The notes beneath the pieces are model-generated. The model did not search any database, was not told where the DNA came from, and worked only from the letters and a program-made list of their open reading frames with translations. The translations under genes were made by a program, and so were the position numbers. From NCBI RefSeq assembly GCF_025024155.1, contig NW_026251801.1, forward strand, positions 1 through 64,000: DNA of 64,000 nt. Reading direction: 5' to 3'. Source of the stretch: Gamsiella multidivaricata. Its lineage: Eukaryota; Mortierellomycota; Mortierellomycetes; Mortierellales; Mortierellaceae. Numbering within the stretch: position 1 is the first letter of the stretch; each line of letters begins with the position of its first letter. Below, one piece after another: positions 34,446-55,235 of this stretch.

Positions 34446-35129
34446 AAGTGAAGAAAGAAGGGAGGTTTTGGAGTGGACAGATGGCATGAGATGAGGAAGA
34501 GTGGAGGTGAGGATGGGTATTTATATTCGTCTGAATGCTTAACAATCGCTTATGATCGGACAGGGTCCAGACGGCATGTGGACGAGACTTTGTTGGTATG
34601 GCAGTGCCTCATTTTCCCATCTGCACAAGAAGGTGCAGAAGCAATTTAGCCGCGTAGCGTGGGCTCTGTTCCTTTCTTCTTTCTGTACCCCTGTCCATTG
34701 TGTCCAGCTGGACAGCGACTTTCTTGTTGTGGTGGTTGTGCTTCCAAATGCAAGCAGAGGCATGCACAAGTGAGAATGTGAGAAGAAAGTTGCAGGCTTC
34801 ATGGCAAGTGGACATTTAATTGGTCCTAGCTCGGCTCCCGCCGATACCACTTTTCCCTATACTGTTTCCAAATAGGATTCTATTTTTCATTTTTTTGTAT
34901 CCCATATCGTGTCCTTAGTATATCAGTCACTGTTGCCAATTGCCCCTTCTGTGCTACCCTCCTGGGCGGTATCAACCTTGAAGATGACGATGCAGGCTGA
35001 GACGAATCCGGCCCTGCTTTTTTTATATAAAGAATCGTCTCTCGAATCGATTGGCACTGCAAATCCATCGGAGCTAACTAGCAATGATTTACAACAGTTG
35101 CCATTCACGCCGAAGCAGAGCCGATCCTC
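34446..35129. other. intergenic, no gene seen
   Basis: Upstream region of the small protein gene, including its TATA box, then sequence up to the dispersed repeat. No supported coding sequence. Confidence 0.5.
34518..34525 (-). promoter_or_regulatory. TATA box of the small Ser/Thr/Met-rich gene
   Basis: TATAAATA on the minus strand, about 100 bp upstream of the ATG at 34420, followed by a pyrimidine-rich leader. Confidence 0.5.
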
Positions 35130-35990
35130 AGTCGCCTAGGGCCTATGCAGCAATTGCCACACCTCATCAGTGCGTTAAAAGCTGAAGGCTACGTGTTACA
35201 AAAAGGGTAGTATTCCCCATCCCCTCCGTGGTTGTCAACCGCCGCTGCAGGGCGTGCAGGTAGGGATTTTTTTTTTTTTTATTAACATAAATCCCCATGA
35301 GCACGCGACGAAGGGCGTGCAGTTAGGGAGCCTATTTTTATAAGCGTGCAGTTAGGGATACAATGCACTTAGGGAACGAATGCAAATAAAGGAATAATCA
35401 GGTATATCAGACCCTTGTGAACGCGAAAAAAAAAAAACTAGGAATGCGGCTTGAATCCCACCTGTTTAAGTCTGGAGGGACATACCGGGAGCACCCGCTA
35501 ATGGCATCTCCTAGCTTGAGTTCGATCTCGGACAGTGACTTTTTTTTTTTTACTATCTTCAGCGATAGGGACAATCTATTTGACAACCGGGTTGACACTG
35601 TTAGTTGGCAACCCCTATACTAACTCCATGTAAGGCCAACATTTTTTAAATGTCGATTATGCTAGTAGTCCTTTTGGTATTGCATCATGAGATGGTATCC
35701 TTCGTCCTTGTCTTCGCATAGCACAAGGCACTTGAAGCACAAGGCACTTGAGGCGCAGGGTCCATTAACGTCCGTGAGCAGCAACGTTAGAGTACAAGTG
35801 CGCATGAAATGAACGCTCACAGTGCCGTGTGTCTCACTCAGCCAGGCACACGATGGTATTTCCGAACAAACATATTTTCCTTGGGCACTATCGCGTACGG
35901 GGCGCAGCTGTGAACGCGCAGATGAGAGCCGTCTGTTTCATTCAGGTCGAGGTAGGCCCGTGTTTTGCCACCAGTTCGTACATGGCGTTC
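35130..35990 (+). repeat. Dispersed tRNA-like repeat at the outer end of the left arm
   Basis: Same family as 15520-16255. The core 35461-35551 has GAGTTCGATCTC (35518-35529) followed by T12, a possible Pol III terminator. It starts about 195 bp outside the palindrome boundary (35325), so the family is older than, or independent of, the arm duplication. Confidence 0.6.
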
Positions 35991-36879
35991 GCATGATGAG
36001 CGAGACACACGTGGAAATGCATTCATTAGAGACAGAATAGGTCTATTGAAAGGCACTACTCGAATACGAACTATTCTGCATGGATTTTGTGCCAGCCTTC
36101 ATAACTGCAAACACAGCAGCACATAAGAAAATTTATCAATTTAGCTAGAGATAGATCTATTGAATAGGAAATCTATTAGACAAACCAGGCTGTGGAGTTT
36201 GTCGACTGCGCCTCTTGTCTGCATGCGCGAAAGGTGCAGGAGCGACAATGTTGTGGACGTGCTCAGCTTCGATGTACGCGTTGTTGCCATTGCTGCTGGT
36301 GCTGTTGCTCTTGCTGTTACTCTTGCTGCTGCTGTCGTCGTGGTCCTGTTCACTTGAACTTGCCTTTGTATACTAGTCTGCTGAGTCCACTGCCATAAGC
36401 CGAATAATTAAAGATACGTCTTTCCTCAGAGGGACCCTGCTATTTACTCCCTGTAGCAGATTGAATAGCAAGCAAGTGAAGCGACCAACGTCCAGGCAGT
36501 CTTCCTCTCTCCCTCTCTCCCTCTCTCTTCTTTCTTTTCTGCACGGGAGTGTATGCATACAGAATCGTGGGTGAGGGTGGGAACCATGTATAGGGACAGG
36601 CCCCAGCTCCATATCAAAAAAAGGAGGTTGGTGTTCTTTTGCCTCAACCGTTATCAGAGATTGGGCGTTTCCTTTTTGGGTTAGGTTTAACCTCATTTGG
36701 CAACATCCAACCCATGGATCACTGCTGCTTCTGCACGCTGCTTTCCTCGATAGTGCTGCTCATTTGTCCTGTGCCGCTCCATCCACACGTCTCTCGCGTC
36801 GCACCGATGAGGGTCGACTGCCGCACTTGCTCGTCTTCTTCTTGTGCGCCAACGATCATTTCTGATCGACAACGAGAAA

Positions 36880-36983
36880 GACAGAGACAGAGACAGAGAC
36901 AGAGACAGAGACAGAGACAGAGACAGAGACAGAGACAGAGACAGAGACAGAGACAGAGACAGAGACAGAGACAGAGACAGAGT
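36880..36983 (+). repeat. Hexanucleotide microsatellite (GACAGA)n, about 17 units
   Basis: Uninterrupted run with mirror copy (TCTGTC)n at 53556-53659. The same copy number in both arms argues for very recent arm homogenisation, because such arrays change quickly. Confidence 0.9.
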
Positions 36984-37450
36984 CAGGTACAGGGGATTTC
37001 CTGCTGGACAAAAGCTGGCGTCTGTCAAAAGCATTTCCCAGCAGCTGACTCCCCCGCCTTTTCTCTTGGCACCCGTCCTGCTGTTCCTTATGCTTCATGC
37101 TCCATGTTTCATGTCCCGTATGTCATCCGCTGCTATTTATGCTCTACTCATTACTCTCTACTCTCGGTATTCTTCATATTCTCCACAGTGGCCATAGTAT
37201 TGCAGCATTCTATGGTCCAGTGATCTTCGGATTTTGCATTTTGAGCCCAAAGCGCGTCCGCAATGCAGTGGCCCCCGTCGCACCAGAGCCACGGACAGCA
37301 GGTGCCTCTCCTCTCATTGCCAGTGCCAACGAGCCAATAAATCTAGAATAAGCTGAACTGAACTGAATAAGACTGAATAAACCTGGACACCGTCAACTCC
37401 GGGTGCCTTTCATCGAGTGTGCATATACCCAGAGCATGAAGCACAGGCCA

Positions 37451-37456
37451 TATAAA
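37451..37456 (+). promoter_or_regulatory. TATA box of the left-arm Dicer-like gene
   Basis: TATAAA in CCATATAAACC, 170 bp before the ATG at 37626, followed by a CACA/CTCT-rich leader. It is retained in all three copies in the window. Confidence 0.55.
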
Positions 37457-37625
37457 CCCTGGTTCCCTTCACCTTTGCTCCACATACTCTCTCACACTCA
37501 CACACTCACACTTACACACTGACACACACACTCTCACTCTTTCTTTCCAGCCCTTTGTGTCTCTTCAGAAGCACCATCACATCAACCACTTTACATATCT
37601 TCATCGACCACCGCCACAGACCATC

Positions 37626-40017
37626 ATGAACACCACCGCACTCATCCCTACCATTGCTGCATATATTGTTGCGGCAGCCGATCCAGTCTGTGTTGACGCG
37701 CAGCTTGCTCTGCCGCTCCTCACACAGATTGTTAAAAAGATACGCCAGGAACACCGCGGCCGGGTAATCTGTCCTATCAGCACCGTGACTGGATGTGCTT
37801 CTCTATCTCCACACTCACCTACGGTCACCCGCACTCACACATATATCTCAATCATGTCCCTCCTTGTCTTCTTTTGCAGGGTATCGTCCTGTTTGTAGTG
37901 CCAGACACGCGTGCTCTCGATCCGAGCCTAGGCCGCTCCTACCAGAGCAACCGCATCAAAGCCACAGTCGTTCAGGGCGCTGCGGCTCCAGAGACAGCCA
38001 ACGCCCAGATGTGGCAAGCACTCTCAATGGAGTTCGAGGTAATAACGACCTCTGTGGAGATTGCGACCAGCCTTCTGAGGCATCCATTGGTGCACGTCCG
38101 AGTGGTAAGTCCTATGATTCCATATCCGCACAAACATACGCCAGAAAGAAGATAGAGTGAACAGTACAGCAGCATGAGCTTTGAAGTGCCTGCAGGCGCC
38201 ATAGGTTCGAGTCGGTGGTTTGGGCGTTTGAATACGCCGTCGCAAACCTCGGCCCATGGTGTGCAGTCAGTGTATGGCACCCTGCATTGCAGGACTTCAA
38301 GGCCAGAGCCATGAGTACGGCGTCAGCGTCGGCTCATGAGAGTCGTCAAGCGATTGACGACTTGACAGCCATTGCGGACAACCTCGAACATGCGCCGCAA
38401 CCGAACCCCACGATCCGAGGCAAGCTGGATGGGTTGATCAGGATCCTCCAGTCATATCGCAACGAAGCCAATGGCTTCTGCGCGATTGTCCTCGTTGAGC
38501 GTGAGGTAATTGCGCGCGTCCTGTGCGAGTTCCTGGCGCAATTCGGACAGGAGTTTGGTCTGGACTTCGTCCGGTCTTCACTGCTTGCTGGTCGCCGAAT
38601 CAAGAGGGTGGATGTTGGTCGGCGCCGCGAGCAGGCTGCAAGGGAGAAACAGGCGATCAAGGGCTTCCACCGAGGTGACAGGAACCTCCTGGTCACTTCC
38701 GAGGCCAACGAGGAGTTTGCCATGGACGCCATCCACTTTGGTTTGGTTGTCAGGTATGTCCTTCAAGGCCTGTTGCGCGTTATATTGATTCGAGTTGAAG
38801 CAGTAAGGTCGATCTAACCGCTATCTTTTTTCTTTTTTCTTTCTTCTTGTCCTTGTCCTTGTTCTTTTTTTTTTTTTTTTTTTTTTTTTCCTCCTTTCTC
38901 TCTCACTCTCCCTCTCGCTCCCTCTCTTTTACACCCACAATAGGCTCGAACTGCGGGATGAGGACCTCTACGCGTACATAAAGTCGTCCTCTTTGGCTCA
39001 AGACCAGGTCAGGGACGTTGTAGTGCTGAGTTCCTGTCGCGACGCGTCCCACCTCGTGCTCGTCACCCCTTCTGCGATCCGGCCGCGAGCACCTGCTGCT
39101 CCCAAAATTACCCCTGCCGCAACGTCTGCTGTCGGCAACATTGTGTTCAAGTTCGTCATTTCTCTCAACTTTTTCGTGCGGGATTTAACACTAGGCTAGG
39201 GCCGCCTGACCACGCAGACGAGCGTCATGGTAAGCAATCAAATCCTCAATCAAAACCACCCTGCAACGAGCAGTAGTGGCTCCAAAAGACAGCGAGCTAA
39301 TCCGAAAGTAAGGGCGGACAAGGCTAAGCTGGGGCGAGCTTTCCTTGAGGATGGTTGGGACGAGGTTCTGGCTGCAGCCGTAGTGCTTGTTGGCCCTCTA
39401 CCGGGGATTACATTCTGGAGCAATTTTTGGGATGAATTCCAAGATGCTGCAGCAAGAGCGGCAAACACATTGCCTCGCCCACGGACACAGGACTTCGAGC
39501 GTCTTCACGCTGTGGAGGGCATCATAGGGCAGACGTTCGCCTATTGGTGTATGCCCTGGACATGGCCACGCTCCAGTATCAGCGCCTGGAGTTTATCGGG
39601 GACTGCGCGCTGGATTTGGTTGCCGTCGAGTACTGAGCGAGGAGATTCCCAGTGAAGGTAAATAGCACGATTTCGACGCTGCAGTCATCGAGTGCCAGAA
39701 ATGATGTGCTGGCGGTGGTGACCTCCCAGCTACAGCTCCACCATCATATCGAGGCAAAGCAGAACCAGAAGGATAGCCTGAAGCGTGTAGCCAGCCTAGT
39801 CGGTACGGAGGTGCAGGTGCCACCAGGACTGAATTTCTTATACTACTTGAAGGGTCTTAAGCTCACAAAGAGCGCCGGTGATCTGCTCGAGGCTGTTTTT
39901 GGGGCCGTTTTTGTAGACTCAAAATTCGAGCTGACAGCTGTGGCCGGTATATTCGAGCGATGCATGTCGCCCTTGCTGGAGAAGCACATTGCACAATACA
40001 GCGATAGTATATATTAA
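37626..40017 (+). pseudogene. Condensed Dicer-like gene, left arm
   Basis: The first part splices cleanly: exons 37626-37763, 37880-38104, about 38204-38754 and from 38944. It reads as Dicer helicase: QIVKKIRQEHRG, GIVLFVVPDTRALD (motif Ia), SLLRHPLVHV, NLGPWCAVSVWHPAL, KLDGLIRILQSY, RSSLLAG and EKQAIKGFHRGDRNLLVTSEANEE (helicase-C). The Walker A site is replaced (ADPVCVDAQ), the DExH segment is absent, and motif VI reads IKSSSLAQ instead of QSRGRAR. Next comes an RNase IIIa C-terminal piece (LEDGWDEVLAAAVVLVGPLPGI); DUF283, PAZ and most of RNase IIIa are missing. RNase IIIb has LQYQRLEFIGDCALDLVAVEY and GDLLEAVFGAVFVDS, keeping the four acidic catalytic positions, but needs frame changes near 39540 and 39640. 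There is no dsRNA-binding domain. Domain identity is firm; whether any product is made is unknown. Confidence 0.8.
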
Positions 40018-40329
40018 ATAGAAAAATAAAATAAAAAAATAAGAAAAGATAGAAAGGCTTTTGTGTCCGATAGCAGGGTGTGCACGGCAGGAGTAAGGTG
40101 TTGAAGCTCAAAGTACAAAATCCTAATACCTAGTCGATACAGCGCAATTCAGCAAGGAACCATAGGAGGAGTGTCTGCTTCATGAATCCACTAGTTGCTT
40201 GATGTAGCGTATATGCGCTTTTTGCATGGTATCATTGTGGATGGGACGATCTACATCATCCCACACACAAACATACTTTGGGCGACCCAACACTCCATGC
40301 AATCGCTACCAAGGCAGGAGGTTATGAGC

Positions 40330-40490
40330 CACTTGAGATCACTTGATGATCCAAAGAACCCTGATGACTTGCTCGGCGCTGTCTTCGGGGCGGGTTTAAC
40401 GGACTTCAGCTGACAGCAGTCGCCTGAGCCATTGAGTGCTGCATGCGGCCTGCGCTTAGCCAGCAATTTGCATAGAGAGGCATCTATTAA
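40330..40490 (+). pseudogene. Second, tandem RNase III C-terminal fragment, left arm
   Basis: Reads DPKNPDDLLGAVFGAG, then after a frame change LQLTAVA and, past a stop, AIECCMRPALSQQFA. This parallels GDLLEAVFGAVFVDS...ELTAVAGIFERCMSPLLEKHIA of the Dicer-like gene 300 bp upstream. It is a decayed duplicate of the RNase IIIb end, so the element has undergone internal tandem duplication before the palindrome formed. Confidence 0.65.
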
Positions 40491-40666
40491 AGGTATTTCC
40501 CAAGAAACGTCCAATCCTATTTGGGAAACAATATATGAAGCGAGAGCATTAAAGCTTTGAAAGTGAGAACGATTGGAGTCAAGAGCGCAACTAAGTATCA
40601 TTTCACAAATGGGTCATGAACTCATTAGTTATCGATAAGCCGTGTATGTACTGTAATATCTCACTG

Positions 40667-40926
40667 TCTCGAGCTCATTGGTCGTCTCGGCAGCTTTGGC
40701 GAGATATTTCATGGATCAGTATTCGGCCGCGAGCACGCTCAACACGCAATCACCCACCGGTTCCAGAGGCTCGAACTAGTGAAGTCGAGGTCCAACGCGT
40801 AGTAAAGCAGGGCGAAGTCGTTGAAAGAGCAGCCAATGGCGTACAAGTACATCGTTCGGAAATTTTCATTCGTGCTGGAGGTGGTTTCGGTCTGAAGCAT
40901 TCACTCCAATTGAAAATATATAGATA
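40667..40926 (+). pseudogene. Casein-kinase-1-like P-loop fragment, left arm
   Basis: One frame reads LIGRLGSFGEIFHGS then FQRLELVKSRSNA, followed by two stops and KSLKEQPMAYKYIVRKF. This resembles the glycine-rich loop and following strand of CK1 kinases (IGxGSFGxIYxG ... KLExVKSR). The catalytic lysine and the rest of the kinase are not visible. A captured gene fragment is the simplest reading; chance resemblance is possible. Confidence 0.35.
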
Positions 40927-40965
40927 GGCGACAATGTATGTTTTTCCTTACTCATCCTCCAGCAA

Positions 40966-41346
40966 TCAAAGCCTATCTACAAAGAGCCCTAACTCATGCT
41001 CTAATCTAGATTTATTGATGCGACGCAACTTTTCCGCGACATCGACAAGGTCTTGAAAGACACTTTTTGCGTCGTCCAACTTCTTTTTTGATGGACTTGA
41101 TTCCGGCGATACGTATTCTTGAAGAATGGCAGCGGCGGGAGAGCGGAGAACAAAAGTGATCTTCTCCTTGTTTGGCCTCTGAGGAAACCGATAGTCCATG
41201 TCCGAATCATCAGCCTCATGAATCTCGTCTTCCTTAACAAAACCATTCTCCTTGTACTGCTTGAAAACGTCCCTGAATCTTTCATCTCCAATTATTCTCA
41301 TGGCAGACTCAAGGACCGACTTGGAAGGGTCTTCGGTATTGCACAT
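40966..41346 (-). CDS. Uncharacterised ORF, left arm
   Basis: About 126 residues from an internal ATG (MCNTEDPSKSVLESAM); the frame is open further upstream without an ATG, so a 5' exon may be missing. The protein is charged and helical, with ERFRDVFKQYKENGFVKEDEIHEADDS-like polar segments and a C-terminal helix ending LGLFVDRL. No family recognised. It looks coding by composition (balanced, non-repetitive) and is transcribed opposite to the Dicer-like gene, converging on it. An identical copy lies in the right arm. Confidence 0.45.
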   Translation of the reverse strand: MCNTEDPSKSVLESAMRIIGDERFRDVFKQYKENGFVKEDEIHEADDSDMDYRFPQRPNKEKITFVLRSPAAAILQEYVSPESSPSKKKLDDAKSVFQDLVDVAEKLRRINKSRLEHELGLFVDRL

Positions 41347-41836
41347 GCTGACATAATTGAAGACGGCAACGTTTTCTTCCCCGAACGAATAGCAAAAAAA
41401 ATGCAGAGGAAAATGCTTAAACAAAACACGCGTTACCGGAAGACATAAAGGTTCAGGCTAGTTGATCCTATTCCCAGCTACGCAGCATTCATGAGTACAC
41501 AGCGTACATGAGTGCAGGGTTTGACGTTCTGACATGTGCTGGCTGCACCCCCTATCATCTCGTAACCACGCGCTGGCGCTGCTTAAGCCCAACCCACAGA
41601 TAAATGGCCCTCCGGGTGTCCCCCATGTGTTCGGCTGATTATTCTCCGCGCGATTGCGGTTAGCACTTTCACGTTACCTTTACCGAGCCGCTTAATGAGA
41701 GAGGGAGTAAGAGCGTGGGATACCTGCAGGGGTTGCCACCAATTTCAGACACAGCCACCCCAGCGTGCACGTGCCCCAAATCTTTGTTGGCCACACAGCT
41801 CTTTTTTTTCTCTTCTCTTTTCTTCTTCACTCCTCA

Positions 41837-41859
41837 CCCCCCCCCCCCCCCCCCCCCCC
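41837..41859 (+). repeat. C23 homopolymer, left arm
   Basis: Run of 23 C; the mirror run in the right arm has 24 G. It is the only inner difference between the arms that I found, and accounts for the one-base change in the mirror sum. Confidence 0.85.
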
Positions 41860-43457
41860 TCCCTCACTCTCCCTTCTGCACTATTCACTCCCTTCTGCGC
41901 TCTTCACTATCTTTCACACAGCGGACAAGACCACCACGGTAAGCAAACAGAGCTACAAAGCTCCTCCTCTTTTCCTTTCCTGCCAACTGGCAACACAACC
42001 ACAACCACTGCCACTACCACTCCTGCTGCCACTGCACCCCTTGTACCCACTTCTACTGCCACTGCACCTCCTGGTACGTGCTCCACTTCTGTTTCTCGTC
42101 CACTGACCACTTGGCCTTGCTCGGTCCTACCCTACCCTGCCCTTCCTCTCCTTCCTTCTGTCCCTTGACAGAGCAGCACCTCTTTCGTCTCTGCTCCCAC
42201 AACAGACCCCCACAAGGTAGGCAAAGCGCGTCCACACCACCTTCCCTTGCACACAACCAACCTCCTTGCTCACTTGCTGAGCTTTGTCATTAAGGCAGGG
42301 GCCCCCAGAGCGTTTTTAGTCCCTTTTCACGTGTCCACGTGGGTGTGCTTTATAAATGCATAGAATATGGCAGCTAGTATCAGTGCCATTTCGTGTGTGC
42401 CGGTTTGAAGAAGATTTGTTGCAGCACAACGGCAGCCAGGCGCAGTGCGACGGGTCCTACCACTGACCTACATGTGGATTCCTCACGCTGTGGAGGATGA
42501 AGCATTGGGCATGTCGCACAGCATTTAAGTGTGTGCGGGGTGAGGGTAGGGCCTTAGAGCCACGATCCAACAATGGCCCCCGAGTGCTCCATTTAGTGAC
42601 ACAACGGCACACGCCCTTTCTGGTGTTGCACTACCCCCTGTTGCTTCATGTACAGCATGCAAGCGCACCACTCCTTCTGCTCATGGGCATAGTGTGCTGG
42701 GGCCCTCTTTTGAGCCCATACGGCGCAGCACACTGGGTAGATGGCAAACGCAATACCGCTTGGGATATTACACAGCGAGCAGCATCCTCTATCTCCACAA
42801 TTTTCTGCACAGTTGTTCTTCTTTCCGTTTCCACTTCGGATTCTTGTGTGCTCCTTGAGCGCCAAGATGGAAATATGGATGTTTGAAACCGGATGGGTAG
42901 CTCGCTGTCCTTTTCTATGTAGTTTGTTTCTCGTTTCTTTTTGTTCTGCTGGTTCTCAGTTCCCCAAGGCAAAGCGAGACAAAGGCGGGGGGATGGGTTG
43001 TGGAAGTTAGCGCGCCTTCACAGGCTGTGTGATATTGGCAAGTTACGTCTACAGAGCTAACAATTTCTTTTTTCTTTTGCATGTTCTCTCTCTTTATGGT
43101 TGCAAACACAACAACGCGAGCACGATGCGCACTGGACGACACCAAACGGCACCGGAAGGTATTGGACGGTCCTGGTCGGCACCAGACGAGAGTACGACGA
43201 CACCAGAGTGGCACTGGAACAGCAGCAGGACGTATTCAGGGCGATTGAACCGGATGGTCGAGCAGGGCAGGGCGAATGAACAATACAGTCGAGTAAGGAC
43301 GGCTTGAATGCAAATAAACAATCATATCACACATAACAAGTGCACGGGCACCAGCAATGCTAACGAAAGTGATGCGGAGCTTGTTGCTTTGGACGCATCG
43401 CCATGTTGTTTCTTTCGTCTTCGTCTTTGTCTTCGTCTTTGTTTTCGTCTTTGTTTT
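41860..43457. other. Inner part of left arm, no gene supported
   Basis: CT-rich and then mixed sequence up to the inner breakpoint. A 129-codon ATG frame at 42497-42886 lies about 140 bp after a TATAAA but shows no family resemblance, and opposite-strand frames of similar length overlap it. It ends in a GTCTTC/GTCTTT microsatellite. Confidence 0.5.
42328..42356 (+). promoter_or_regulatory. Possible promoter: two CACGTG boxes plus TATAAA
   Basis: CACGTG at 42328-42333 and 42336-42341, followed by TATAAA at 42351-42356. The paired E-boxes and spacing look like a real core promoter; the downstream transcript is unknown. Mirror copy at 48182-48210. Confidence 0.35.
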
Positions 43458-45840
43458 CGTTTTCGCGTTCTTTTTTTTTTTTTTTGTTGCCATATCGCGC
43501 AAGCAGCTGCTACGAACAGCATCCCATGGTCTTGCAGTCTATCATGGCCAAGCATGGGAATGCTTCTTCGATCTTTTCTGCACAGCTGTCCCCAGAACAC
43601 AGATATCGCTCTGAAAAAGTTTTCTATTCTCTTTTCACTCTAGCCTCGCATGCCTTGGCTTGCATCAACAATCAACGGTTATCCTCGCTCCTATTCACCG
43701 ACTGCGTGTTTCTGCTCAGCGGATATCTATCACTTAATGTGATACATACCCATCCTGCAACTGTATCCTTAAACAGGTCTGCATCGGCATCGCCCAGCAC
43801 TCCTCCGACAACCCGCGTTTCCGTCATACTTGGGTACGCATACACAGATTATTCCATAGTTAGGTCCGGCGCACTTGATCACTTCAGCAAGTACAATCTA
43901 TTCAGACCAAGAACGATAGTTAACACTCGGTAGGATGTCCTCTTCATGGCGCCTGCGAGCGACAGGGATTGACCAGAAGGCAAGTCTAAGGTGAGCAGAA
44001 GGGCCTTATCGGGTTAAACGCTCGCTGCCTGTTCCAGGTGTAGATAAGCTCCTGATATGCTGGGAGGTTCAACTTCAGCAGTGCGCTGAACTGCTGTGGG
44101 GACTAGGCGAAGCCTGCTGACACCATGGCATATATATTCGGGGTCCCAAACTTTTGTATGTATGTTCCATTTGTGCTCCGCTGCAATTCCATCTGAAGAG
44201 AGTGAGAATGGAGTGAAAACGGAACGGAAAGCCGTTGGAACGGTTGTTGAAGCGGTTCAGACCTTTCCATTTATATTTCATTTGTGCTCTGCTTCAGGCA
44301 TCACACAGCTTACTTCCTCCTGGCATGCAAAAATGCAGAAATGTAAAAAAACAAGAATGCACAAAAATCCCTTTCACTTGCTCACATCCGCCATCATCCA
44401 CTCTCGATTTGACGATAGAGTCTCGTATGGAACCTCAATTAGCTCCTACAAAGCACTCTCTAGCGCAGCAGTCGTCTAACATCACTTCCAAAGAAGACGG
44501 TGCGTGGCGAGATATCCATTTTTAGGCGCCGTTCAATCGACACCTGATCATATGCTAAACTTGATGTTCCCAGAGTTAAATATGGCCAATGATTTTTTTT
44601 TTTTTTACTTTGGAAGAAGCCGGGAAGCCTCAATATGATCGCAAAGGAAAGCGGAGAAGGGTAAGGAGATAGTGGTGACGAACGACGCGCCATATGAAAC
44701 AGAAGGAAGCTGACACTCTTTGTTTTAATGACTTTGATGTCGATATCTGTTCCAGATGGCTTGAAATCGAATCGAATAGGGCGGTGGTCTTTAGGGCAGG
44801 CAACATAAACCGTATAGGAGAAACAACAAGCGCGAAAATGCCTGGAAGGTGCTGACTAACTGTTTCAATACAGTGTCCGATGAACCTTGCAACATTACAG
44901 GAAAAGCAATGAGGAGCGCACTTTGAGATATAGATACGGTCTCTTTCAGGTCAAGGCAGCAGTCGACGATACTGAGTTCGATGTTGCCATAGCTGATCTC
45001 GCTGGAGAGATCCAGATGGCCAAACAGAACCGGGAGCATATGTGTCACGGCTACGATAGGATGGATGCTATGTTTGGACGAAAGCCGAATGTCGATCTGG
45101 CACATGAGGGTTAGTTTGATCAAGCAATGACCTCTGGGAAGACTACTCGAGGATGCAGTGCTACGAAGTCTCGAGAGAAGGATGCAGAGGATGCAGGGGA
45201 TTTTAAACAACGCTGAGCATGCAGAGAATATTGAGGATGCCACACGTGTCCAGGATGCCGAGGATATTTAGGACAACAAAAAGGCCTGGAGGAGCGCACT
45301 TGCGCCTGAAAAACATTTCGTGGGACCTGAGGACGTTGATCTTGGAAGTCCTGGATTCAGTACGAGAAAATGCGTTGTTGCAAATAGAAGGATGATGGCC
45401 AGTGTTGATTTTGCCTCGGAAAGCAGCTGGGAGCAGCCTTTATTAACGCTGGCTAGCCCAAGGTTCGGCTCCACGCTCAAACGACGGCTCTTTGATGGAT
45501 AAAGCTCCCTGAGCAGAGTTTCTAAACAATCCGACGCACGCAGAGCGCCTCCCAAACCGGATGCTGGTTGCTTTCGTCTTCGTTGACATATCTTTACGTG
45601 CTATGTACTTTTCGCTTAGTTTTAGAATCCATCGAAGAGAAGAACCTGCAGTTGGAGGAAGAGAAGCCTCAGTCCACACAGAAGGTCGCATCAGGTACGA
45701 ACAAGCACCAGCTTATGAACAGTATTGTTGATTAAAACAGCCGTTGGGCCAAATTCTGGAGTTCCTTGACGCGGCGAAGAAATTCTTACAAGTACTTTAT
45801 TATCATGTCGATATCACATCGATATCGCTCCAATAAATTA
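43458..45840. other. Left part of palindrome spacer, nothing recognised
   Basis: Single-copy sequence between the arms. Short frames at 43403-43933, 44887-45114 and 45268-45691 have no family features. A T-run lies at 44588-44602. The mirror axis of the arms is at about 45269, inside this unique region. Confidence 0.5.
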
Positions 45841-47071
45841 CCCTTTGCGCGATTTGTTTCGAGCGCTGTTTCCTTCAAGCTCTTTCCGTACTGTTATAGC
45901 GGTCGCTGTCGTATCAGTTAGGCTGGCGTCGAAGGTGAACATCTTCCGCGTACATCTTTTTCCAAGCATCGCCAAGGAATGCTGGCGTGTTGAGCAGCAC
46001 ACAACATCCCATCGCTCATTCAAACAATGACCGCACATCTTCATTGCGGATACATATCCTCATTTCCCTGAGTAAGCTCCACCGAGATTTCAATACGCCG
46101 ATACAGTGTTCATCGCGGACACAGGACATAGCCAAGCAATAGTTGAAAGCAGTATTGTCAGGGTGGTTCGCTGCAGGAGACTTAGTATGCAGGGATGAAG
46201 TACTTTGTGAGTCTATGCGCAGAGTCAGCAAGGAGGTTCTCGCTGAGTAAGAAGTGCAACTCCAGATTCTTGTATACTTTCATCCGATTGTAGACCTTAT
46301 AGTCCGCGCAAGTTCCTGGGCAACCCACATGCATCGTCACGTTCTGTCTATCCACATCGCAAACAGTCTGCATGGCAACAGAATTTCTATTAAAAACACC
46401 TGTCAGTAAAGATGAGTGATGGGTAGATCATATCTGGCCATGATGCAAAACTCCGTACCTTTTTCTTGTCAAAGTATACTTCTCCATCCATGGCGGGCTC
46501 CTGGGATAGAAGTATAGTCATCCCATCAATGAATCCAATGCAACTGGAAAGCCTTCCTCACACATTATTTGACCAATTTCCTCCCTTCATTTCTCGTTCG
46601 GCCATGCACTCACTCATGCACGATGGACAACAACGCGGTTATCATTCGCTTTTTGCACAGCGTCATTGTACCTGTTTCAGTCCCAAGCTCAAAGGTCGGC
46701 TCGAAAACACCTACTTGTTTCCATAATGTCCAAATCCAGACAAAACGACAGCCAGGTGCCGCTAGGAATCTACCTAGGAGTATGCTGTATTGTTGTGGAA
46801 CACTGATAATCTCGATTAAGGATACATACGGCAGAAAAGTCCTCTTTCGTAGTGCTAAAAGTCGTGCAACACTGGTTGCTTGAAGGTTGAGAAAGATATT
46901 CAGAAGGAAATAAGCTTGTCGATTGCATGGTTGTAGGTAATGGATGGATCGAGAATTCGCAACCATGGCGTAAAGAAGGACTGCGTCTTCTTCCTCTTTT
47001 TCCTCGTCATCCGCACTTACAAGGACAATCCACATGCCCAGATCGGCGATGAGCTGCATACGTTCAGGCAT
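45841..47071 (-). pseudogene. PIF/Harbinger transposase (HARBI1-like), frameshifted
   Basis: Minus-strand transposase remnant. The ATG at 47069-47071 starts MPERMQLIADLGMW. The catalytic part reads IGFIDGMTILLSQEPAMDGEVYF (first Asp), an intron near 46390-46460, QTVCDVDRQNVTMHVGCPGTCADYKVYNR (second Asp in PGTCAD), LLSENLLADSAHRL, and AFNYCLAMSCVRDEHCIGVLKSRW (Glu in DEHCIG), so the DDE residues of DDE_4 are all present. Reading frame changes are needed near 46560 (one base lost before IGFIDG) and near 46187 (one base gained after IPAY). Probably dead. Terminal repeats of the element were not found. The start codon lies 10 bp from the right arm's inner edge. Confidence 0.75.
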
Positions 47072-48181
47072 GCGAGAACTAAAACAAAGACGAAAACAAA
47101 GACGAAGACAAAGACGAAGACGAAAGAAACAACATGGCGATGCGTCCAAAGCAACAAGCTCCGCATCACTTTCGTTAGCATTGCTGGTGCCCGTGCACTT
47201 GTTATGTGTGATATGATTGTTTATTTGCATTCAAGCCGTCCTTACTCGACTGTATTGTTCATTCGCCCTGCCCTGCTCGACCATCCGGTTCAATCGCCCT
47301 GAATACGTCCTGCTGCTGTTCCAGTGCCACTCTGGTGTCGTCGTACTCTCGTCTGGTGCCGACCAGGACCGTCCAATACCTTCCGGTGCCGTTTGGTGTC
47401 GTCCAGTGCGCATCGTGCTCGCGTTGTTGTGTTTGCAACCATAAAGAGAGAGAACATGCAAAAGAAAAAAGAAATTGTTAGCTCTGTAGACGTAACTTGC
47501 CAATATCACACAGCCTGTGAAGGCGCGCTAACTTCCACAACCCATCCCCCCGCCTTTGTCTCGCTTTGCCTTGGGGAACTGAGAACCAGCAGAACAAAAA
47601 GAAACGAGAAACAAACTACATAGAAAAGGACAGCGAGCTACCCATCCGGTTTCAAACATCCATATTTCCATCTTGGCGCTCAAGGAGCACACAAGAATCC
47701 GAAGTGGAAACGGAAAGAAGAACAACTGTGCAGAAAATTGTGGAGATAGAGGATGCTGCTCGCTGTGTAATATCCCAAGCGGTATTGCGTTTGCCATCTA
47801 CCCAGTGTGCTGCGCCGTATGGGCTCAAAAGAGGGCCCCAGCACACTATGCCCATGAGCAGAAGGAGTGGTGCGCTTGCATGCTGTACATGAAGCAACAG
47901 GGGGTAGTGCAACACCAGAAAGGGCGTGTGCCGTTGTGTCACTAAATGGAGCACTCGGGGGCCATTGTTGGATCGTGGCTCTAAGGCCCTACCCTCACCC
48001 CGCACACACTTAAATGCTGTGCGACATGCCCAATGCTTCATCCTCCACAGCGTGAGGAATCCACATGTAGGTCAGTGGTAGGACCCGTCGCACTGCGCCT
48101 GGCTGCCGTTGTGCTGCAACAAATCTTCTTCAAACCGGCACACACGAAATGGCACTGATACTAGCTGCCATATTCTATGCA

Positions 48182-48210
48182 TTTATAAAGCACACCCACG
48201 TGGACACGTG
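48182..48210 (-). promoter_or_regulatory. Possible promoter, mirror copy
   Basis: Paired CACGTG and TATAAA on the minus strand, identical to 42328-42356. Confidence 0.35.
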
Positions 48211-48678
48211 AAAAGGGACTAAAAACGCTCTGGGGGCCCCTGCCTTAATGACAAAGCTCAGCAAGTGAGCAAGGAGGTTGGTTGTGTGCAAGGGAAGGTG
48301 GTGTGGACGCGCTTTGCCTACCTTGTGGGGGTCTGTTGTGGGAGCAGAGACGAAAGAGGTGCTGCTCTGTCAAGGGACAGAAGGAAGGAGAGGAAGGGCA
48401 GGGTAGGGTAGGACCGAGCAAGGCCAAGTGGTCAGTGGACGAGAAACAGAAGTGGAGCACGTACCAGGAGGTGCAGTGGCAGTAGAAGTGGGTACAAGGG
48501 GTGCAGTGGCAGCAGGAGTGGTAGTGGCAGTGGTTGTGGTTGTGTTGCCAGTTGGCAGGAAAGGAAAAGAGGAGGAGCTTTGTAGCTCTGTTTGCTTACC
48601 GTGGTGGTCTTGTCCGCTGTGTGAAAGATAGTGAAGAGCGCAGAAGGGAGTGAATAGTGCAGAAGGGAGAGTGAGGGA

Positions 48679-48702
48679 GGGGGGGGGGGGGGGGGGGGGG
48701 GG
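48679..48702 (+). repeat. G24 homopolymer, right arm
   Basis: Mirror of the C23 run at 41837, one base longer. Confidence 0.85.
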
Positions 48703-49192
48703 TGAGGAGTGAAGAAGAAAAGAGAAGAGAAAAAAAAGAGCTGTGTGGCCAACAAAGATTTGGGGCACGTGCACGCTGGGGTGGCTGTGTCTGAAATTGG
48801 TGGCAACCCCTGCAGGTATCCCACGCTCTTACTCCCTCTCTCATTAAGCGGCTCGGTAAAGGTAACGTGAAAGTGCTAACCGCAATCGCGCGGAGAATAA
48901 TCAGCCGAACACATGGGGGACACCCGGAGGGCCATTTATCTGTGGGTTGGGCTTAAGCAGCGCCAGCGCGTGGTTACGAGATGATAGGGGGTGCAGCCAG
49001 CACATGTCAGAACGTCAAACCCTGCACTCATGTACGCTGTGTACTCATGAATGCTGCGTAGCTGGGAATAGGATCAACTAGCCTGAACCTTTATGTCTTC
49101 CGGTAACGCGTGTTTTGTTTAAGCATTTTCCTCTGCATTTTTTTTGCTATTCGTTCGGGGAAGAAAACGTTGCCGTCTTCAATTATGTCAGC

Positions 49193-49573
49193 ATGTGCAA
49201 TACCGAAGACCCTTCCAAGTCGGTCCTTGAGTCTGCCATGAGAATAATTGGAGATGAAAGATTCAGGGACGTTTTCAAGCAGTACAAGGAGAATGGTTTT
49301 GTTAAGGAAGACGAGATTCATGAGGCTGATGATTCGGACATGGACTATCGGTTTCCTCAGAGGCCAAACAAGGAGAAGATCACTTTTGTTCTCCGCTCTC
49401 CCGCCGCTGCCATTCTTCAAGAATACGTATCGCCGGAATCAAGTCCATCAAAAAAGAAGTTGGACGACGCAAAAAGTGTCTTTCAAGACCTTGTCGATGT
49501 CGCGGAAAAGTTGCGTCGCATCAATAAATCTAGATTAGAGCATGAGTTAGGGCTCTTTGTAGATAGGCTTTGA
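49193..49573 (+). CDS. Uncharacterised ORF, right arm
   Basis: Identical protein to the minus-strand ORF at 40966-41346, about 126 residues from MCNTEDPSK, open upstream to 49115 without an ATG. Charged, helical, no family recognised. It is transcribed toward the right-arm Dicer-like gene, which runs in the opposite direction. Confidence 0.45.
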   Translation: MCNTEDPSKSVLESAMRIIGDERFRDVFKQYKENGFVKEDEIHEADDSDMDYRFPQRPNKEKITFVLRSPAAAILQEYVSPESSPSKKKLDDAKSVFQDLVDVAEKLRRINKSRLEHELGLFVDRL

Positions 49574-49612
49574 TTGCTGGAGGATGAGTAAGGAAAAACA
49601 TACATTGTCGCC

Positions 49613-49872
49613 TATCTATATATTTTCAATTGGAGTGAATGCTTCAGACCGAAACCACCTCCAGCACGAATGAAAATTTCCGAACGATGTACTTGTACGC
49701 CATTGGCTGCTCTTTCAACGACTTCGCCCTGCTTTACTACGCGTTGGACCTCGACTTCACTAGTTCGAGCCTCTGGAACCGGTGGGTGATTGCGTGTTGA
49801 GCGTGCTCGCGGCCGAATACTGATCCATGAAATATCTCGCCAAAGCTGCCGAGACGACCAATGAGCTCGAGA
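49613..49872 (-). pseudogene. Casein-kinase-1-like fragment, right arm
   Basis: Mirror copy of 40667-40926 with the same two in-frame stops after KSRSNA. Confidence 0.35.
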
Positions 49873-50048
49873 CAGTGAGATATTACAGTACATACACGGC
49901 TTATCGATAACTAATGAGTTCATGACCCATTTGTGAAATGATACTTAGTTGCGCTCTTGACTCCAATCGTTCTCACTTTCAAAGCTTTAATGCTCTCGCT
50001 TCATATATTGTTTCCCAAATAGGATTGGACGTTTCTTGGGAAATACCT

Positions 50049-50209
50049 TTAATAGATGCCTCTCTATGCAAATTGCTGGCTAAGCGCAGGCCGCATGCAG
50101 CACTCAATGGCTCAGGCGACTGCTGTCAGCTGAAGTCCGTTAAACCCGCCCCGAAGACAGCGCCGAGCAAGTCATCAGGGTTCTTTGGATCATCAAGTGA
50201 TCTCAAGTG
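50049..50209 (-). pseudogene. Second RNase III fragment, right arm
   Basis: Mirror copy of 40330-40490, with the same frame break and stop. Confidence 0.65.
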
Positions 50210-50521
50210 GCTCATAACCTCCTGCCTTGGTAGCGATTGCATGGAGTGTTGGGTCGCCCAAAGTATGTTTGTGTGTGGGATGATGTAGATCGTCCCATCC
50301 ACAATGATACCATGCAAAAAGCGCATATACGCTACATCAAGCAACTAGTGGATTCATGAAGCAGACACTCCTCCTATGGTTCCTTGCTGAATTGCGCTGT
50401 ATCGACTAGGTATTAGGATTTTGTACTTTGAGCTTCAACACCTTACTCCTGCCGTGCACACCCTGCTATCGGACACAAAAGCCTTTCTATCTTTTCTTAT
50501 TTTTTTATTTTATTTTTCTAT

Positions 50522-52913
50522 TTAATATATACTATCGCTGTATTGTGCAATGTGCTTCTCCAGCAAGGGCGACATGCATCGCTCGAATATACCGGCCACA
50601 GCTGTCAGCTCGAATTTTGAGTCTACAAAAACGGCCCCAAAAACAGCCTCGAGCAGATCACCGGCGCTCTTTGTGAGCTTAAGACCCTTCAAGTAGTATA
50701 AGAAATTCAGTCCTGGTGGCACCTGCACCTCCGTACCGACTAGGCTGGCTACACGCTTCAGGCTATCCTTCTGGTTCTGCTTTGCCTCGATATGATGGTG
50801 GAGCTGTAGCTGGGAGGTCACCACCGCCAGCACATCATTTCTGGCACTCGATGACTGCAGCGTCGAAATCGTGCTATTTACCTTCACTGGGAATCTCCTC
50901 GCTCAGTACTCGACGGCAACCAAATCCAGCGCGCAGTCCCCGATAAACTCCAGGCGCTGATACTGGAGCGTGGCCATGTCCAGGGCATACACCAATAGGC
51001 GAACGTCTGCCCTATGATGCCCTCCACAGCGTGAAGACGCTCGAAGTCCTGTGTCCGTGGGCGAGGCAATGTGTTTGCCGCTCTTGCTGCAGCATCTTGG
51101 AATTCATCCCAAAAATTGCTCCAGAATGTAATCCCCGGTAGAGGGCCAACAAGCACTACGGCTGCAGCCAGAACCTCGTCCCAACCATCCTCAAGGAAAG
51201 CTCGCCCCAGCTTAGCCTTGTCCGCCCTTACTTTCGGATTAGCTCGCTGTCTTTTGGAGCCACTACTGCTCGTTGCAGGGTGGTTTTGATTGAGGATTTG
51301 ATTGCTTACCATGACGCTCGTCTGCGTGGTCAGGCGGCCCTAGCCTAGTGTTAAATCCCGCACGAAAAAGTTGAGAGAAATGACGAACTTGAACACAATG
51401 TTGCCGACAGCAGACGTTGCGGCAGGGGTAATTTTGGGAGCAGCAGGTGCTCGCGGCCGGATCGCAGAAGGGGTGACGAGCACGAGGTGGGACGCGTCGC
51501 GACAGGAACTCAGCACTACAACGTCCCTGACCTGGTCTTGAGCCAAAGAGGACGACTTTATGTACGCGTAGAGGTCCTCATCCCGCAGTTCGAGCCTATT
51601 GTGGGTGTAAAAGAGAGGGAGCGAGAGGGAGAGTGAGAGAGAAAGGAGGAAAAAAAAAAAAAAAAAAAAAAAAAGAACAAGGACAAGGACAAGAAGAAAG
51701 AAAAAAGAAAAAAGATAGCGGTTAGATCGACCTTACTGCTTCAACTCGAATCAATATAACGCGCAACAGGCCTTGAAGGACATACCTGACAACCAAACCA
51801 AAGTGGATGGCGTCCATGGCAAACTCCTCGTTGGCCTCGGAAGTGACCAGGAGGTTCCTGTCACCTCGGTGGAAGCCCTTGATCGCCTGTTTCTCCCTTG
51901 CAGCCTGCTCGCGGCGCCGACCAACATCCACCCTCTTGATTCGGCGACCAGCAAGCAGTGAAGACCGGACGAAGTCCAGACCAAACTCCTGTCCGAATTG
52001 CGCCAGGAACTCGCACAGGACGCGCGCAATTACCTCACGCTCAACGAGGACAATCGCGCAGAAGCCATTGGCTTCGTTGCGATATGACTGGAGGATCCTG
52101 ATCAACCCATCCAGCTTGCCTCGGATCGTGGGGTTCGGTTGCGGCGCATGTTCGAGGTTGTCCGCAATGGCTGTCAAGTCGTCAATCGCTTGACGACTCT
52201 CATGAGCCGACGCTGACGCCGTACTCATGGCTCTGGCCTTGAAGTCCTGCAATGCAGGGTGCCATACACTGACTGCACACCATGGGCCGAGGTTTGCGAC
52301 GGCGTATTCAAACGCCCAAACCACCGACTCGAACCTATGGCGCCTGCAGGCACTTCAAAGCTCATGCTGCTGTACTGTTCACTCTATCTTCTTTCTGGCG
52401 TATGTTTGTGCGGATATGGAATCATAGGACTTACCACTCGGACGTGCACCAATGGATGCCTCAGAAGGCTGGTCGCAATCTCCACAGAGGTCGTTATTAC
52501 CTCGAACTCCATTGAGAGTGCTTGCCACATCTGGGCGTTGGCTGTCTCTGGAGCCGCAGCGCCCTGAACGACTGTGGCTTTGATGCGGTTGCTCTGGTAG
52601 GAGCGGCCTAGGCTCGGATCGAGAGCACGCGTGTCTGGCACTACAAACAGGACGATACCCTGCAAAAGAAGACAAGGAGGGACATGATTGAGATATATGT
52701 GTGAGTGCGGGTGACCGTAGGTGAGTGTGGAGATAGAGAAGCACATCCAGTCACGGTGCTGATAGGACAGATTACCCGGCCGCGGTGTTCCTGGCGTATC
52801 TTTTTAACAATCTGTGTGAGGAGCGGCAGAGCAAGCTGCGCGTCAACACAGACTGGATCGGCTGCCGCAACAATATATGCAGCAATGGTAGGGATGAGTG
52901 CGGTGGTGTTCAT
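50522..52913 (-). pseudogene. Condensed Dicer-like gene, right arm
   Basis: Mirror copy of 37626-40017 with the same ATG (52911-52913), splice sites, altered Walker A and motif VI, missing PAZ/RNase IIIa part, RNase IIIb signature and the same frame breaks. Identical lesions in both arms show the decay came before the arms were duplicated or homogenised, or that these changes are tolerated features of the family. Confidence 0.8.
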
Positions 52914-53082
52914 GATGGTCTGTGGCGGTGGTCGATGAAGATATGTAAAGTGGTTGATGTGATGGTGCTTCTGAAGAGACACAAAGGGCTGGAAAGAAAG
53001 AGTGAGAGTGTGTGTGTCAGTGTGTAAGTGTGAGTGTGTGAGTGTGAGAGAGTATGTGGAGCAAAGGTGAAGGGAACCAGGG

Positions 53083-53088
53083 TTTATA
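53083..53088 (-). promoter_or_regulatory. TATA box of the right-arm Dicer-like gene
   Basis: TATAAA on the minus strand, mirror of 37451-37456. Confidence 0.55.
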
Positions 53089-53555
53089 TGGCCTGTGCTT
53101 CATGCTCTGGGTATATGCACACTCGATGAAAGGCACCCGGAGTTGACGGTGTCCAGGTTTATTCAGTCTTATTCAGTTCAGTTCAGCTTATTCTAGATTT
53201 ATTGGCTCGTTGGCACTGGCAATGAGAGGAGAGGCACCTGCTGTCCGTGGCTCTGGTGCGACGGGGGCCACTGCATTGCGGACGCGCTTTGGGCTCAAAA
53301 TGCAAAATCCGAAGATCACTGGACCATAGAATGCTGCAATACTATGGCCACTGTGGAGAATATGAAGAATACCGAGAGTAGAGAGTAATGAGTAGAGCAT
53401 AAATAGCAGCGGATGACATACGGGACATGAAACATGGAGCATGAAGCATAAGGAACAGCAGGACGGGTGCCAAGAGAAAAGGCGGGGGAGTCAGCTGCTG
53501 GGAAATGCTTTTGACAGACGCCAGCTTTTGTCCAGCAGGAAATCCCCTGTACCTG

Positions 53556-53659
53556 ACTCTGTCTCTGTCTCTGTCTCTGTCTCTGTCTCTGTCTCTGTCT
53601 CTGTCTCTGTCTCTGTCTCTGTCTCTGTCTCTGTCTCTGTCTCTGTCTCTGTCTCTGTC
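53556..53659 (-). repeat. Hexanucleotide microsatellite, right arm
   Basis: (TCTGTC)n on the + strand, mirror of the (GACAGA)n array at 36880-36983. Confidence 0.9.
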
Positions 53660-54639
53660 TTTCTCGTTGTCGATCAGAAATGATCGTTGGCGCACAAGAA
53701 GAAGACGAGCAAGTGCGGCAGTCGACCCTCATCGGTGCGACGCGAGAGACGTGTGGATGGAGCGGCACAGGACAAATGAGCAGCACTATCGAGGAAAGCA
53801 GCGTGCAGAAGCAGCAGTGATCCATGGGTTGGATGTTGCCAAATGAGGTTAAACCTAACCCAAAAAGGAAACGCCCAATCTCTGATAACGGTTGAGGCAA
53901 AAGAACACCAACCTCCTTTTTTTGATATGGAGCTGGGGCCTGTCCCTATACATGGTTCCCACCCTCACCCACGATTCTGTATGCATACACTCCCGTGCAG
54001 AAAAGAAAGAAGAGAGAGGGAGAGAGGGAGAGAGGAAGACTGCCTGGACGTTGGTCGCTTCACTTGCTTGCTATTCAATCTGCTACAGGGAGTAAATAGC
54101 AGGGTCCCTCTGAGGAAAGACGTATCTTTAATTATTCGGCTTATGGCAGTGGACTCAGCAGACTAGTATACAAAGGCAAGTTCAAGTGAACAGGACCACG
54201 ACGACAGCAGCAGCAAGAGTAACAGCAAGAGCAACAGCACCAGCAGCAATGGCAACAACGCGTACATCGAAGCTGAGCACGTCCACAACATTGTCGCTCC
54301 TGCACCTTTCGCGCATGCAGACAAGAGGCGCAGTCGACAAACTCCACAGCCTGGTTTGTCTAATAGATTTCCTATTCAATAGATCTATCTCTAGCTAAAT
54401 TGATAAATTTTCTTATGTGCTGCTGTGTTTGCAGTTATGAAGGCTGGCACAAAATCCATGCAGAATAGTTCGTATTCGAGTAGTGCCTTTCAATAGACCT
54501 ATTCTGTCTCTAATGAATGCATTTCCACGTGTGTCTCGCTCATCATGCGAACGCCATGTACGAACTGGTGGCAAAACACGGGCCTACCTCGACCTGAATG
54601 AAACAGACGGCTCTCATCTGCGCGTTCACAGCTGCGCCC

Positions 54640-55235
54640 CGTACGCGATAGTGCCCAAGGAAAATATGTTTGTTCGGAAATACCATCGTGTGCCTGGCTG
54701 AGTGAGACACACGGCACTGTGAGCGTTCATTTCATGCGCACTTGTACTCTAACGTTGCTGCTCACGGACGTTAATGGACCCTGCGCCTCAAGTGCCTTGT
54801 GCTTCAAGTGCCTTGTGCTATGCGAAGACAAGGACGAAGGATACCATCTCATGATGCAATACCAAAAGGACTACTAGCATAATCGACATTTAAAAAATGT
54901 TGGCCTTACATGGAGTTAGTATAGGGGTTGCCAACTAACAGTGTCAACCCGGTTGTCAAATAGATTGTCCCTATCGCTGAAGATAGTAAAAAAAAAAAAG
55001 TTACTGTCCGAGATCGAACTCAAGCTAGGAGATGCCATTAGCGGGTGCTCCCGGTATGTCCCTCCAGACTTAAACAGGTAGGATTCAAGCCGCATTCCTA
55101 GTTTTTTTTTTTTCGCGTTCACAAGGGTCTGATATACCTGATTATTCCTTTATTTGCATTCGTCCCCTAAGTGCATTGTATCCCTAACTGCACGCTTATA
55201 AAAATAGGCTCCCTAACTGCACGCTCTGTGAGAGC
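54640..55235 (-). repeat. Dispersed tRNA-like repeat at the outer end of the right arm
   Basis: Same family as 15520-16255 and 35130-35990; core 54988-55078. Beyond 55215 it diverges from the left-arm copy, which continues with the family consensus. A further piece of the family is recognisable at 55680-55765. Confidence 0.6.

What the first reader, a model, noticed from the sequence alone, without database searches (positions are those of the whole stretch)
35325..55214. Giant near-perfect palindrome: two 8.1-kb arms around a 3.6-kb unique spacer
Positions mirror with constant sum 90539 from the outer edge inward, changing by one only at a C23/G24 run. Even a (GACAGA)17 array has equal length in both arms. 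Such arms imply very recent inverted duplication or continuing gene conversion. The outer 250 bp carries about three substitutions while the interior shows none, which fits conversion that fades at the edges. Long palindromes are unstable, so survival here is notable.
Basis: partly seen in the sequence, partly recalled or inferred. Interest (0 to 1): 0.9.

Follow-up and report, generated by a model that had tools for sequence, protein, structure and literature searches.

The report
Old fungal palindrome kept identical
Two 8.1-kb mirror-image DNA arms in a Mortierella-like fungus look almost identical not because they are new but most likely because the two arms keep copying each other, as on human Y-chromosome palindromes; this is a new case of a known kind.

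Summary
The palindrome is real in the sequence. Left arm 35315-43466 and right arm 47072-55224 differ at 5 bases plus one C23/G24 run, around a 3605-bp spacer. The mismatches sit only at the two edges of the arm. The host is a Mortierellaceae-like fungus.

The spacer is not unique. Contig C30 of the same genome carries a shorter palindrome with the same spacer (87.7% identical), the same inner junctions and homologous inner arms. Over the inner stretch compared, arms are 100% identical within each palindrome but 89% between the two. So the inner inverted repeat is older than the split of the two loci, and each arm pair was homogenised since: concerted evolution by arm-to-arm gene conversion rather than very recent duplication. 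At the inner edge of C30's arms, left out of that comparison, identity breaks off: 0 substitutions in about 1.79 kb, then 24 differing columns in 89 bp.

A third palindrome (C126, 1.6-kb arms) also differs only at its edges. The arms carry a decayed Dicer-like piece; I found no function for the palindrome. Doubts: no reads could be checked, and the outer 6 kb may be a recent extension.

The parts
35315..43466 (+). left arm of the palindrome
   Evidence: self-alignment 99.93% to 55224-47072
47072..55224 (-). right arm of the palindrome
43467..47071 (.). spacer, 3605 bp, GC 0.467; full-length homologue at C30:38630-42183
   Evidence: (3093 of 3525 aligned bases identical)
41391..43466 (+). inner arm unit of left arm, shared with C30 (both arms), C51, C8 and C101 (two places)
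47072..49148 (-). inner arm unit of right arm (inverted copy); among the loci found, its junction with the spacer is seen elsewhere only in C30
35315..41390 (+). outer part of left arm, not found at the C30 palindrome; mirror 49149-55224
39580..39921 (+). RNase III domain of a decayed Dicer-like gene (one in-frame stop); mirror copy 50618-50959 on - strand, also with one in-frame stop
   Evidence: PF00636 52.3 bits, over the cut-off; Dicer chains in PDB, best E 1.9e-4
46182..46427 (-). remnant of a DDE_Tnp_4 (Harbinger-type, name recalled) transposase in the spacer
   Evidence: PF13359 E 3.2e-7; 75% DNA match to C152:54337-54506 over 46068-46237
40966..41457 (-). open frame of 163 aa inside the arm (mirror copy in right arm)
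   Evidence: protein search found only the window's own 126-aa protein (27 candidates scored); partial DNA matches at C125, C101, C115
36879..36986 (+). hexamer array, 18.0 copies; equal array at 53553-53660
41837..41859 (+). C23 run, partner G24 at 48679-48702: the only length difference between arms
35018..35314 (.). left flank: dispersed repeat (matched part 35018-35243), a 15-bp motif at 35252, a 44-bp short repeat 35267-35310, then the arm, which begins with a near-copy of the motif at 35315
55225..55768 (.). right flank: end of what looks like the same dispersed repeat next to the motif, split by a 319-bp stretch that matches another repeat (55281-55599)
5634..16258 (-). third, diverged (69-88%) and interrupted copy of the outer arm, opposite in orientation to the left arm; one 839-bp block (6399-7237) is 98% identical

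Best explanation
An old inverted duplication in a Mortierellaceae-like fungus. A mosaic of repeat-family DNA (transposase remnant, Dicer-like pseudogene, short repeats) lies head to head around a 3.6-kb core, and the inner part of this arrangement existed before the window locus and the C30 locus separated. Since then the two arms have been rewritten from each other by arm-to-arm gene conversion, so the arms stay identical while the spacer and the paralogous palindrome diverge. Shown: the palindrome; the second palindrome with the same spacer and inner junctions; arm identity within and not between palindromes (inner unit); mismatches confined to the arm edges. Inferred: that the process is gene conversion, through a folded chromatid or the sister chromatid as template; that tracts end where the two sides differ by insertions or deletions; that in the window the tract, or a copying event, reached 6 kb further out than in C30, probably with the left arm as donor. 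I see no sign that the palindrome is kept for a function.
For: (1) C30 has a palindrome with homologous spacer (87.7%) and the same spacer/arm junctions; inner-arm identity is 100% within each palindrome (aligned bases, inner edge left out) and 89.0% between them; winL+winR and C30L+C30R are each split from the rest with support 100. If the window's inner arms had diverged as the spacers did, the chance of no difference in about 1670 bp is about 1e-95. (2) In C30 the arm goes from 0 substitutions (and one 11-bp indel) over 36715-38505 to 24 differing columns in 38506-38594 (Fisher p 2e-32, computed with 23 of 89). (3) All 5 window substitutions lie in the outer 223 or inner 9 bp; about 2e-8 by chance if spread evenly (stretches chosen after seeing the data). 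(4) C126 palindrome: 2 substitutions in 1615 bp, each about 10 bp from an edge. (5) The right junction aligns to the left flank's first motif with 42 of 54 bases identical, motif included, and both flanks show the end of a dispersed repeat a few bases from the motif, as in the diverged copy at 16.1-16.3 kb. (6) An 839-bp block elsewhere in the window is 98% identical to the arms while four neighbouring blocks are 83-88% (Fisher p 2e-21; a fifth small block at 81% was not used), which points to exchange between copies in this cluster.
Against: No reads, no second strain and no other species were available. The outer 6 kb has no second palindrome for comparison, so a single recent extension of the arms is not excluded there. 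The flank homology is weak if the shared motif is left out (36 of 5000 random places score as high), and it lies in a repeat with at least 39 other places in the genome. A first form of the flank test gave 78 of 2000 random places as high. No GC bias, often seen with conversion, was found: 23 AT-to-GC against 27 GC-to-AT changes on the window lineage. C51, a single-arm copy, is 96.8% identical to C30's arms, so copying between loci, or loss of an arm, also plays a part.
Confidence: 0.82

Rival explanations
1. Recent extension (not exclusive with the best explanation: it concerns the outer 6 kb only). A small old palindrome (about 2-kb arms plus spacer, as in C30) was recently enlarged to 8.1 kb by one copying event such as break-induced replication, with the left side as template; the outer 6 kb is simply young.
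For: The outer part 35315-41390 is not found at the C30 palindrome and shows no substitution between 35538 and 41390; the right outer junction lies at a 15-bp motif that also occurs just outside the left arm.
Against: Three substitutions crowd into the outermost 223 bp with none in the next 6 kb, which one copying event would not give unless the edge is a mixed tract; the right flank looks like an older copy of the same region.
Confidence: 0.35
2. Assembly or library artefact (fold-back read, chimeric join, consensus copied to both arms).
For: Arms are almost perfectly identical, and read depth cannot be checked here.
Against: Spacer of 3.6 kb, different flanks on the two sides, mismatches only at edges, a related palindrome on C30 with an 11-bp indel between arms and a diverged inner edge, and a third on C126.
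Confidence: 0.06
3. A DNA transposon with very long terminal inverted repeats, moved by the transposase in its spacer.
For: DDE_Tnp_4 remnant in the spacer; spacer plus arms occur at two places.
Against: Only a fragment of transposase was recognised; inner-arm units exist without the full spacer and partner arm at C51, C8 and C101; arm lengths differ between the two loci, and C30's two outer ends are not symmetric; arms in the window run 6 kb beyond the shared unit.
Confidence: 0.04
4. A repeat-flanked centromere of the Candida tropicalis / fission-yeast type.
For: Same architecture and sizes: core of 3.6 kb without a recognised intact gene, homogenised inverted arms, core related between loci; compare 2-5 kb core and 2-5 kb repeats in PMC4741521 (passages).
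Against: Only two loci in 37.5 Mb hold the whole core; two inner-arm units lie about 90 kb apart on one contig, C101; no marked AT-rich trough; a WDR55-like gene piece starts 1.4 kb from the right arm.
Confidence: 0.03

Closest known systems
Human Y-chromosome palindromes, e.g. P6 (PMC3723533, abstract read)
   Same: Inverted arms over 99.9% identical, identity ascribed to arm-to-arm conversion with tracts of kilobases.
   Different: Fungal locus not known to be sex-linked; arms hold pseudogene pieces and repeats; no GC bias found; no population data.
Caenorhabditis long inverted repeats kept across species (PMC1803023, abstract and Discussion read)
   Same: Inverted structure more conserved than its sequence, arms 99.7% identical in one case, seen by comparing related loci.
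   Different: There orthologues in three species around paralogous gene pairs; here paralogous palindromes in one genome, with a much longer spacer (3.6 kb against 126 bp).
Candida tropicalis homogenised inverted-repeat centromeres (PMC4741521, passages; PMC7292649, passages)
   Same: Core plus inverted repeats, arms more alike within a locus than between loci.
   Different: No evidence of kinetochore function here, and only two loci hold the core.

Membership tests
gene-converted palindrome | long inverted arms with near-complete identity around a spacer | tested here: met
   8.15-kb arms, 99.93%
gene-converted palindrome | arms evolve in concert: more alike within a palindrome than to their counterparts in a related palindrome of shared origin | tested here: met
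   100% within, 89.0% between, spacer 87.7%; inner arms only, inner edge left out; outer 6 kb not testable this way
gene-converted palindrome | conversion events seen among individuals or strains | not testable with these tools
   one genome only
gene-converted palindrome | GC-biased change (common, not defining) | tested here: not met
   23 AT>GC against 27 GC>AT on the window lineage; 5 against 9 on C30's
inverted-repeat centromere | core flanked by homogenised inverted repeats | tested here: met
inverted-repeat centromere | one related locus per chromosome | tested here: inconclusive
   whole core at 2 loci, inner-arm unit at 6 loci of which 2 on one contig; chromosome number unknown
inverted-repeat centromere | CENP-A or kinetochore binding | not testable with these tools
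   no ChIP data
long-TIR transposon | constant element ends shared by copies | tested here: not met
   arm length 8.1 kb against 1.9 kb, asymmetric ends in C30
long-TIR transposon | target-site duplication | not tested
   no fixed element ends to test
long-TIR transposon | intact transposase | tested here: inconclusive
   one fragment of 81 aa matches part of DDE_Tnp_4; no longer frame was recognised, but introns were not modelled

The most novel reading that the evidence does not exclude
The palindromes are repeat-flanked regional centromeres of a Mortierella-like fungus: a fast-evolving core between arms held identical by conversion, as in Candida tropicalis and fission yeast, arisen independently in an early-diverging fungal line. 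A search for Mortierella with centromere and CENP-A listed 6 papers, none by title on Mortierella centromeres (listing only).
Probability: 0.03. Interest if true: 0.8.

Novelty: new member of a known kind. Interest (0 to 1): 0.45.

Why it matters
It gives a natural, internally controlled case of concerted evolution in an early-diverging fungus. Two paralogous palindromes share their spacer, so spacer divergence dates the structure while arm identity dates the last conversion. In the three palindromes seen, identity stops at the arm edges, in places next to insertions or deletions, so limits of conversion tracts could be studied directly. In my literature searches (only named Mortierella) no title listed such a case in a Mortierella relative; only listings were seen there, so that is not proof of absence.

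Tried and rejected
Telomere or subtelomere link: the pattern of four TTAGGG units has no match in the genome, so contig ends could not be judged. GC-biased conversion: not seen. A gene in the spacer, or a switch that inverts the spacer: the one frame compared, the 206-aa frame that runs from the right arm into the spacer, is open in the window but broken in C30, and no gapless stretch tested showed a codon-like substitution pattern; other frames were not compared one by one. Direct alignment of the two flanks without the arm motif is weak (78 of 2000 random places score as high; 36 of 5000); I kept the shared repeat-end/motif junction as supporting evidence only. A genome-wide count of palindromes was not possible: this genome gives no file. 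Among 23 fetched loci (150,533 bases) scanned one by one for arms of 200 bp or more, one inverted repeat over 1 kb (C126) and one of 515 bp (C30) were seen; the C30 palindrome was cut by a locus border in that scan and seen; many of these loci had been chosen by homology to the window. Rfam on the window: only a piece of LSU rRNA. Literature: no case in a Mortierella relative in the listings.
Full report
WHAT IS THERE. The window is bases 1-64000 of contig C174 (129,161 bp) of a 37.48-Mb genome in 180 contigs. One protein of the window has its best named relatives, at 57-62% identity for the top dozen, in Mortierella, Haplosporangium and allied genera; every row with an organism name among the 46 hits is of that kind, and only 8000 candidates were scored (that these are Mortierellaceae is recalled). 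Self-alignment confirms the palindrome: left arm 35315-43466, right arm 47072-55224, spacer 43467-47071. The differences are three substitutions within 223 bp of the outer edge, two within 9 bp of the inner edge, and one base in a C23/G24 run. If five substitutions fell evenly, the chance that all lie in those edge stretches is about 2e-8; the stretches were chosen after seeing the data. Fast-changing sequences are also equal: the hexamer arrays have 18.0 copies each and the T/A runs 25 bases each.

A SECOND PALINDROME WITH THE SAME CORE. There it too lies between inverted arms, 36715-38588 and 42198-44082. The window and C30 align collinearly through left arm, spacer and right arm (41727-49137 against 36715-44408), so both inner junctions are shared. 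The inner-arm unit was aligned from eight places; the diverged innermost stretch (about 70-90 bp) was left out. There the two window arms are identical to each other, the two C30 arms are identical to each other in aligned bases, and the two pairs are 89.0% identical; the spacers are 87.7% identical (3093 of 3525 aligned bases). The maximum-likelihood tree sets winL with winR and C30L with C30R apart, each with support 100. A structure present before a 12% split, with arms that do not differ, means that the arms have been homogenised since the split in both loci. The chance of no difference in about 1670 bp without homogenisation is about 1e-95.

WHERE IDENTITY STOPS. In C30 the arms have no substitution and one 11-bp indel over 36715-38505, then 24 differing columns within 38506-38594, a low-complexity stretch. 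A third palindrome, C126:653272-654886 with 655079-656693 and a 192-bp spacer, differs at two bases, each about 10 bp from an edge. It came to light because part of it is related to the outer arm of the window. C30's left arm lacks about 300 bp that its right arm has, just outside the identical stretch. In the window, the left flank holds a short 44-bp repeat (35267-35310) between two near-copies of a 15-bp motif (35252 and 35315), and the right flank holds a 319-bp stretch of another repeat that begins 56 bp from the arm. Unshared insertions next to the limits fit the idea that they stop conversion; this is inference.

OLDER HOMOLOGY OUTSIDE THE ARMS. Both flanks carry the end of one dispersed repeat (at least 39 other places match it over 100 bp or more; 40 of 207 candidates were scored), and in both it ends a few bases from the motif, as it does in the diverged copy at 16.1-16.3 kb. 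The right junction aligns to the left flank's first motif with 42 of 54 bases identical, motif included, score 46 against a highest value of 29 in 5000 random places of the window; without the arm's own motif, 36 of 5000 random places score as high. An earlier test of the flanks without the motif gave 78 of 2000. I read this as moderate support that the right side was already an old inverted copy which was then overwritten, with the left arm as likely donor.

WHICH SIDE IS OLDER. C101a continues from the inner-arm unit into the left part of the spacer, and C51 and C8 carry the unit with about 231 bp of the left spacer edge. Among the loci found, the right junction is seen elsewhere only in C30. 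So the left arrangement is probably ancestral and the right inner arm the inverted copy. C51 is 96.8% identical to C30's arms, so copying between loci, or loss of one arm, has happened too.

CONTENT. The arms hold an RNase III domain with one in-frame stop in each arm, which matches Dicer chains in the PDB. Two other loci, C35 and C111, each have two uninterrupted RNase III domains. A Dicer-type helicase segment at 38.2-38.8 kb was recognised by eye only; Pfam gave nothing. For a 163-aa frame only the window's own protein was found. The spacer has a DDE_Tnp_4 fragment; the one spacer frame compared with C30 is not kept open there. Gene pieces lie on both sides: a protein kinase at 30.3-32.7 kb and WDR55-like (190 bits, under its cut-off of 200) and thioredoxin-like pieces from 56.6 kb.

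CLUSTER-WIDE EXCHANGE. A third, broken-up copy of the outer arm lies at 5634-16258. One block of 839 bp (6399-7237) is 98.0% identical to the arms, while four neighbouring blocks are 83-88% identical; Fisher p 2e-21 (a fifth block of 108 bp at 81% was not used). The same block on C94 is 84-85% identical to both, so it is not merely a conserved stretch. This is best read as a conversion tract between copies.

RESULTS AGAINST. No GC bias was found: 23 AT-to-GC against 27 GC-to-AT on the window lineage, 5 against 9 on the C30 lineage. The concerted-evolution test covers the inner 2 kb; the outer 6 kb rests on the edge pattern and the flanks. No reads were seen.

COMPARISON WITH KNOWN KINDS. The mechanism is that of human Y palindromes (PMC3723533, abstract) and was proposed for Caenorhabditis inverted repeats (PMC1803023, abstract and Discussion). 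The architecture also resembles Candida tropicalis centromeres, where arms average 93% identity within a centromere and 82% between centromeres (PMC4741521, passages). The centromere reading is kept only as a bold possibility: only two loci hold the core, two inner-arm units sit on one contig, and there is no clear AT-rich trough.

VERDICT. Observation confirmed; interpretation partly supported: an old palindrome maintained by gene conversion, a new member of a known kind.

Noticed in passing
11849-14972: DNA transposon with 174-bp terminal inverted repeats (98.3%), with HTH_Tnp_Tc5 and DDE_1 domains, lying inside the diverged third copy of the outer arm.
   Followed up: partly
15232-15440: Piece of eukaryotic LSU rRNA, 203.6 bits, lying inside repeat-rich DNA.
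   Followed up: no
6399-7237: 839-bp block 98% identical to the palindrome arms while four neighbouring blocks are 83-88% identical: likely conversion tract between copies.
   Followed up: yes
L022 3272-6693 (C126:653272-656693): Another near-perfect palindrome, 1615-bp arms 99.88% identical with a 192-bp spacer.
   Followed up: partly
L050 856-1917 (C123): Uninterrupted 354-aa frame with one RNase III domain, near DNA related to the decayed Dicer-like pieces in the arms: a possible third Dicer-like family beside C35 and C111.
   Followed up: partly
35018-35243: Dispersed repeat with at least 39 other places in the genome, many of them with the same match score, so the copies may be young.
   Followed up: no
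35567-35679: About 113 bp matching a short repeat at about 90-96% in many places, often with an inverted partner some 300 bp away (MITE-like, name recalled).
   Followed up: no
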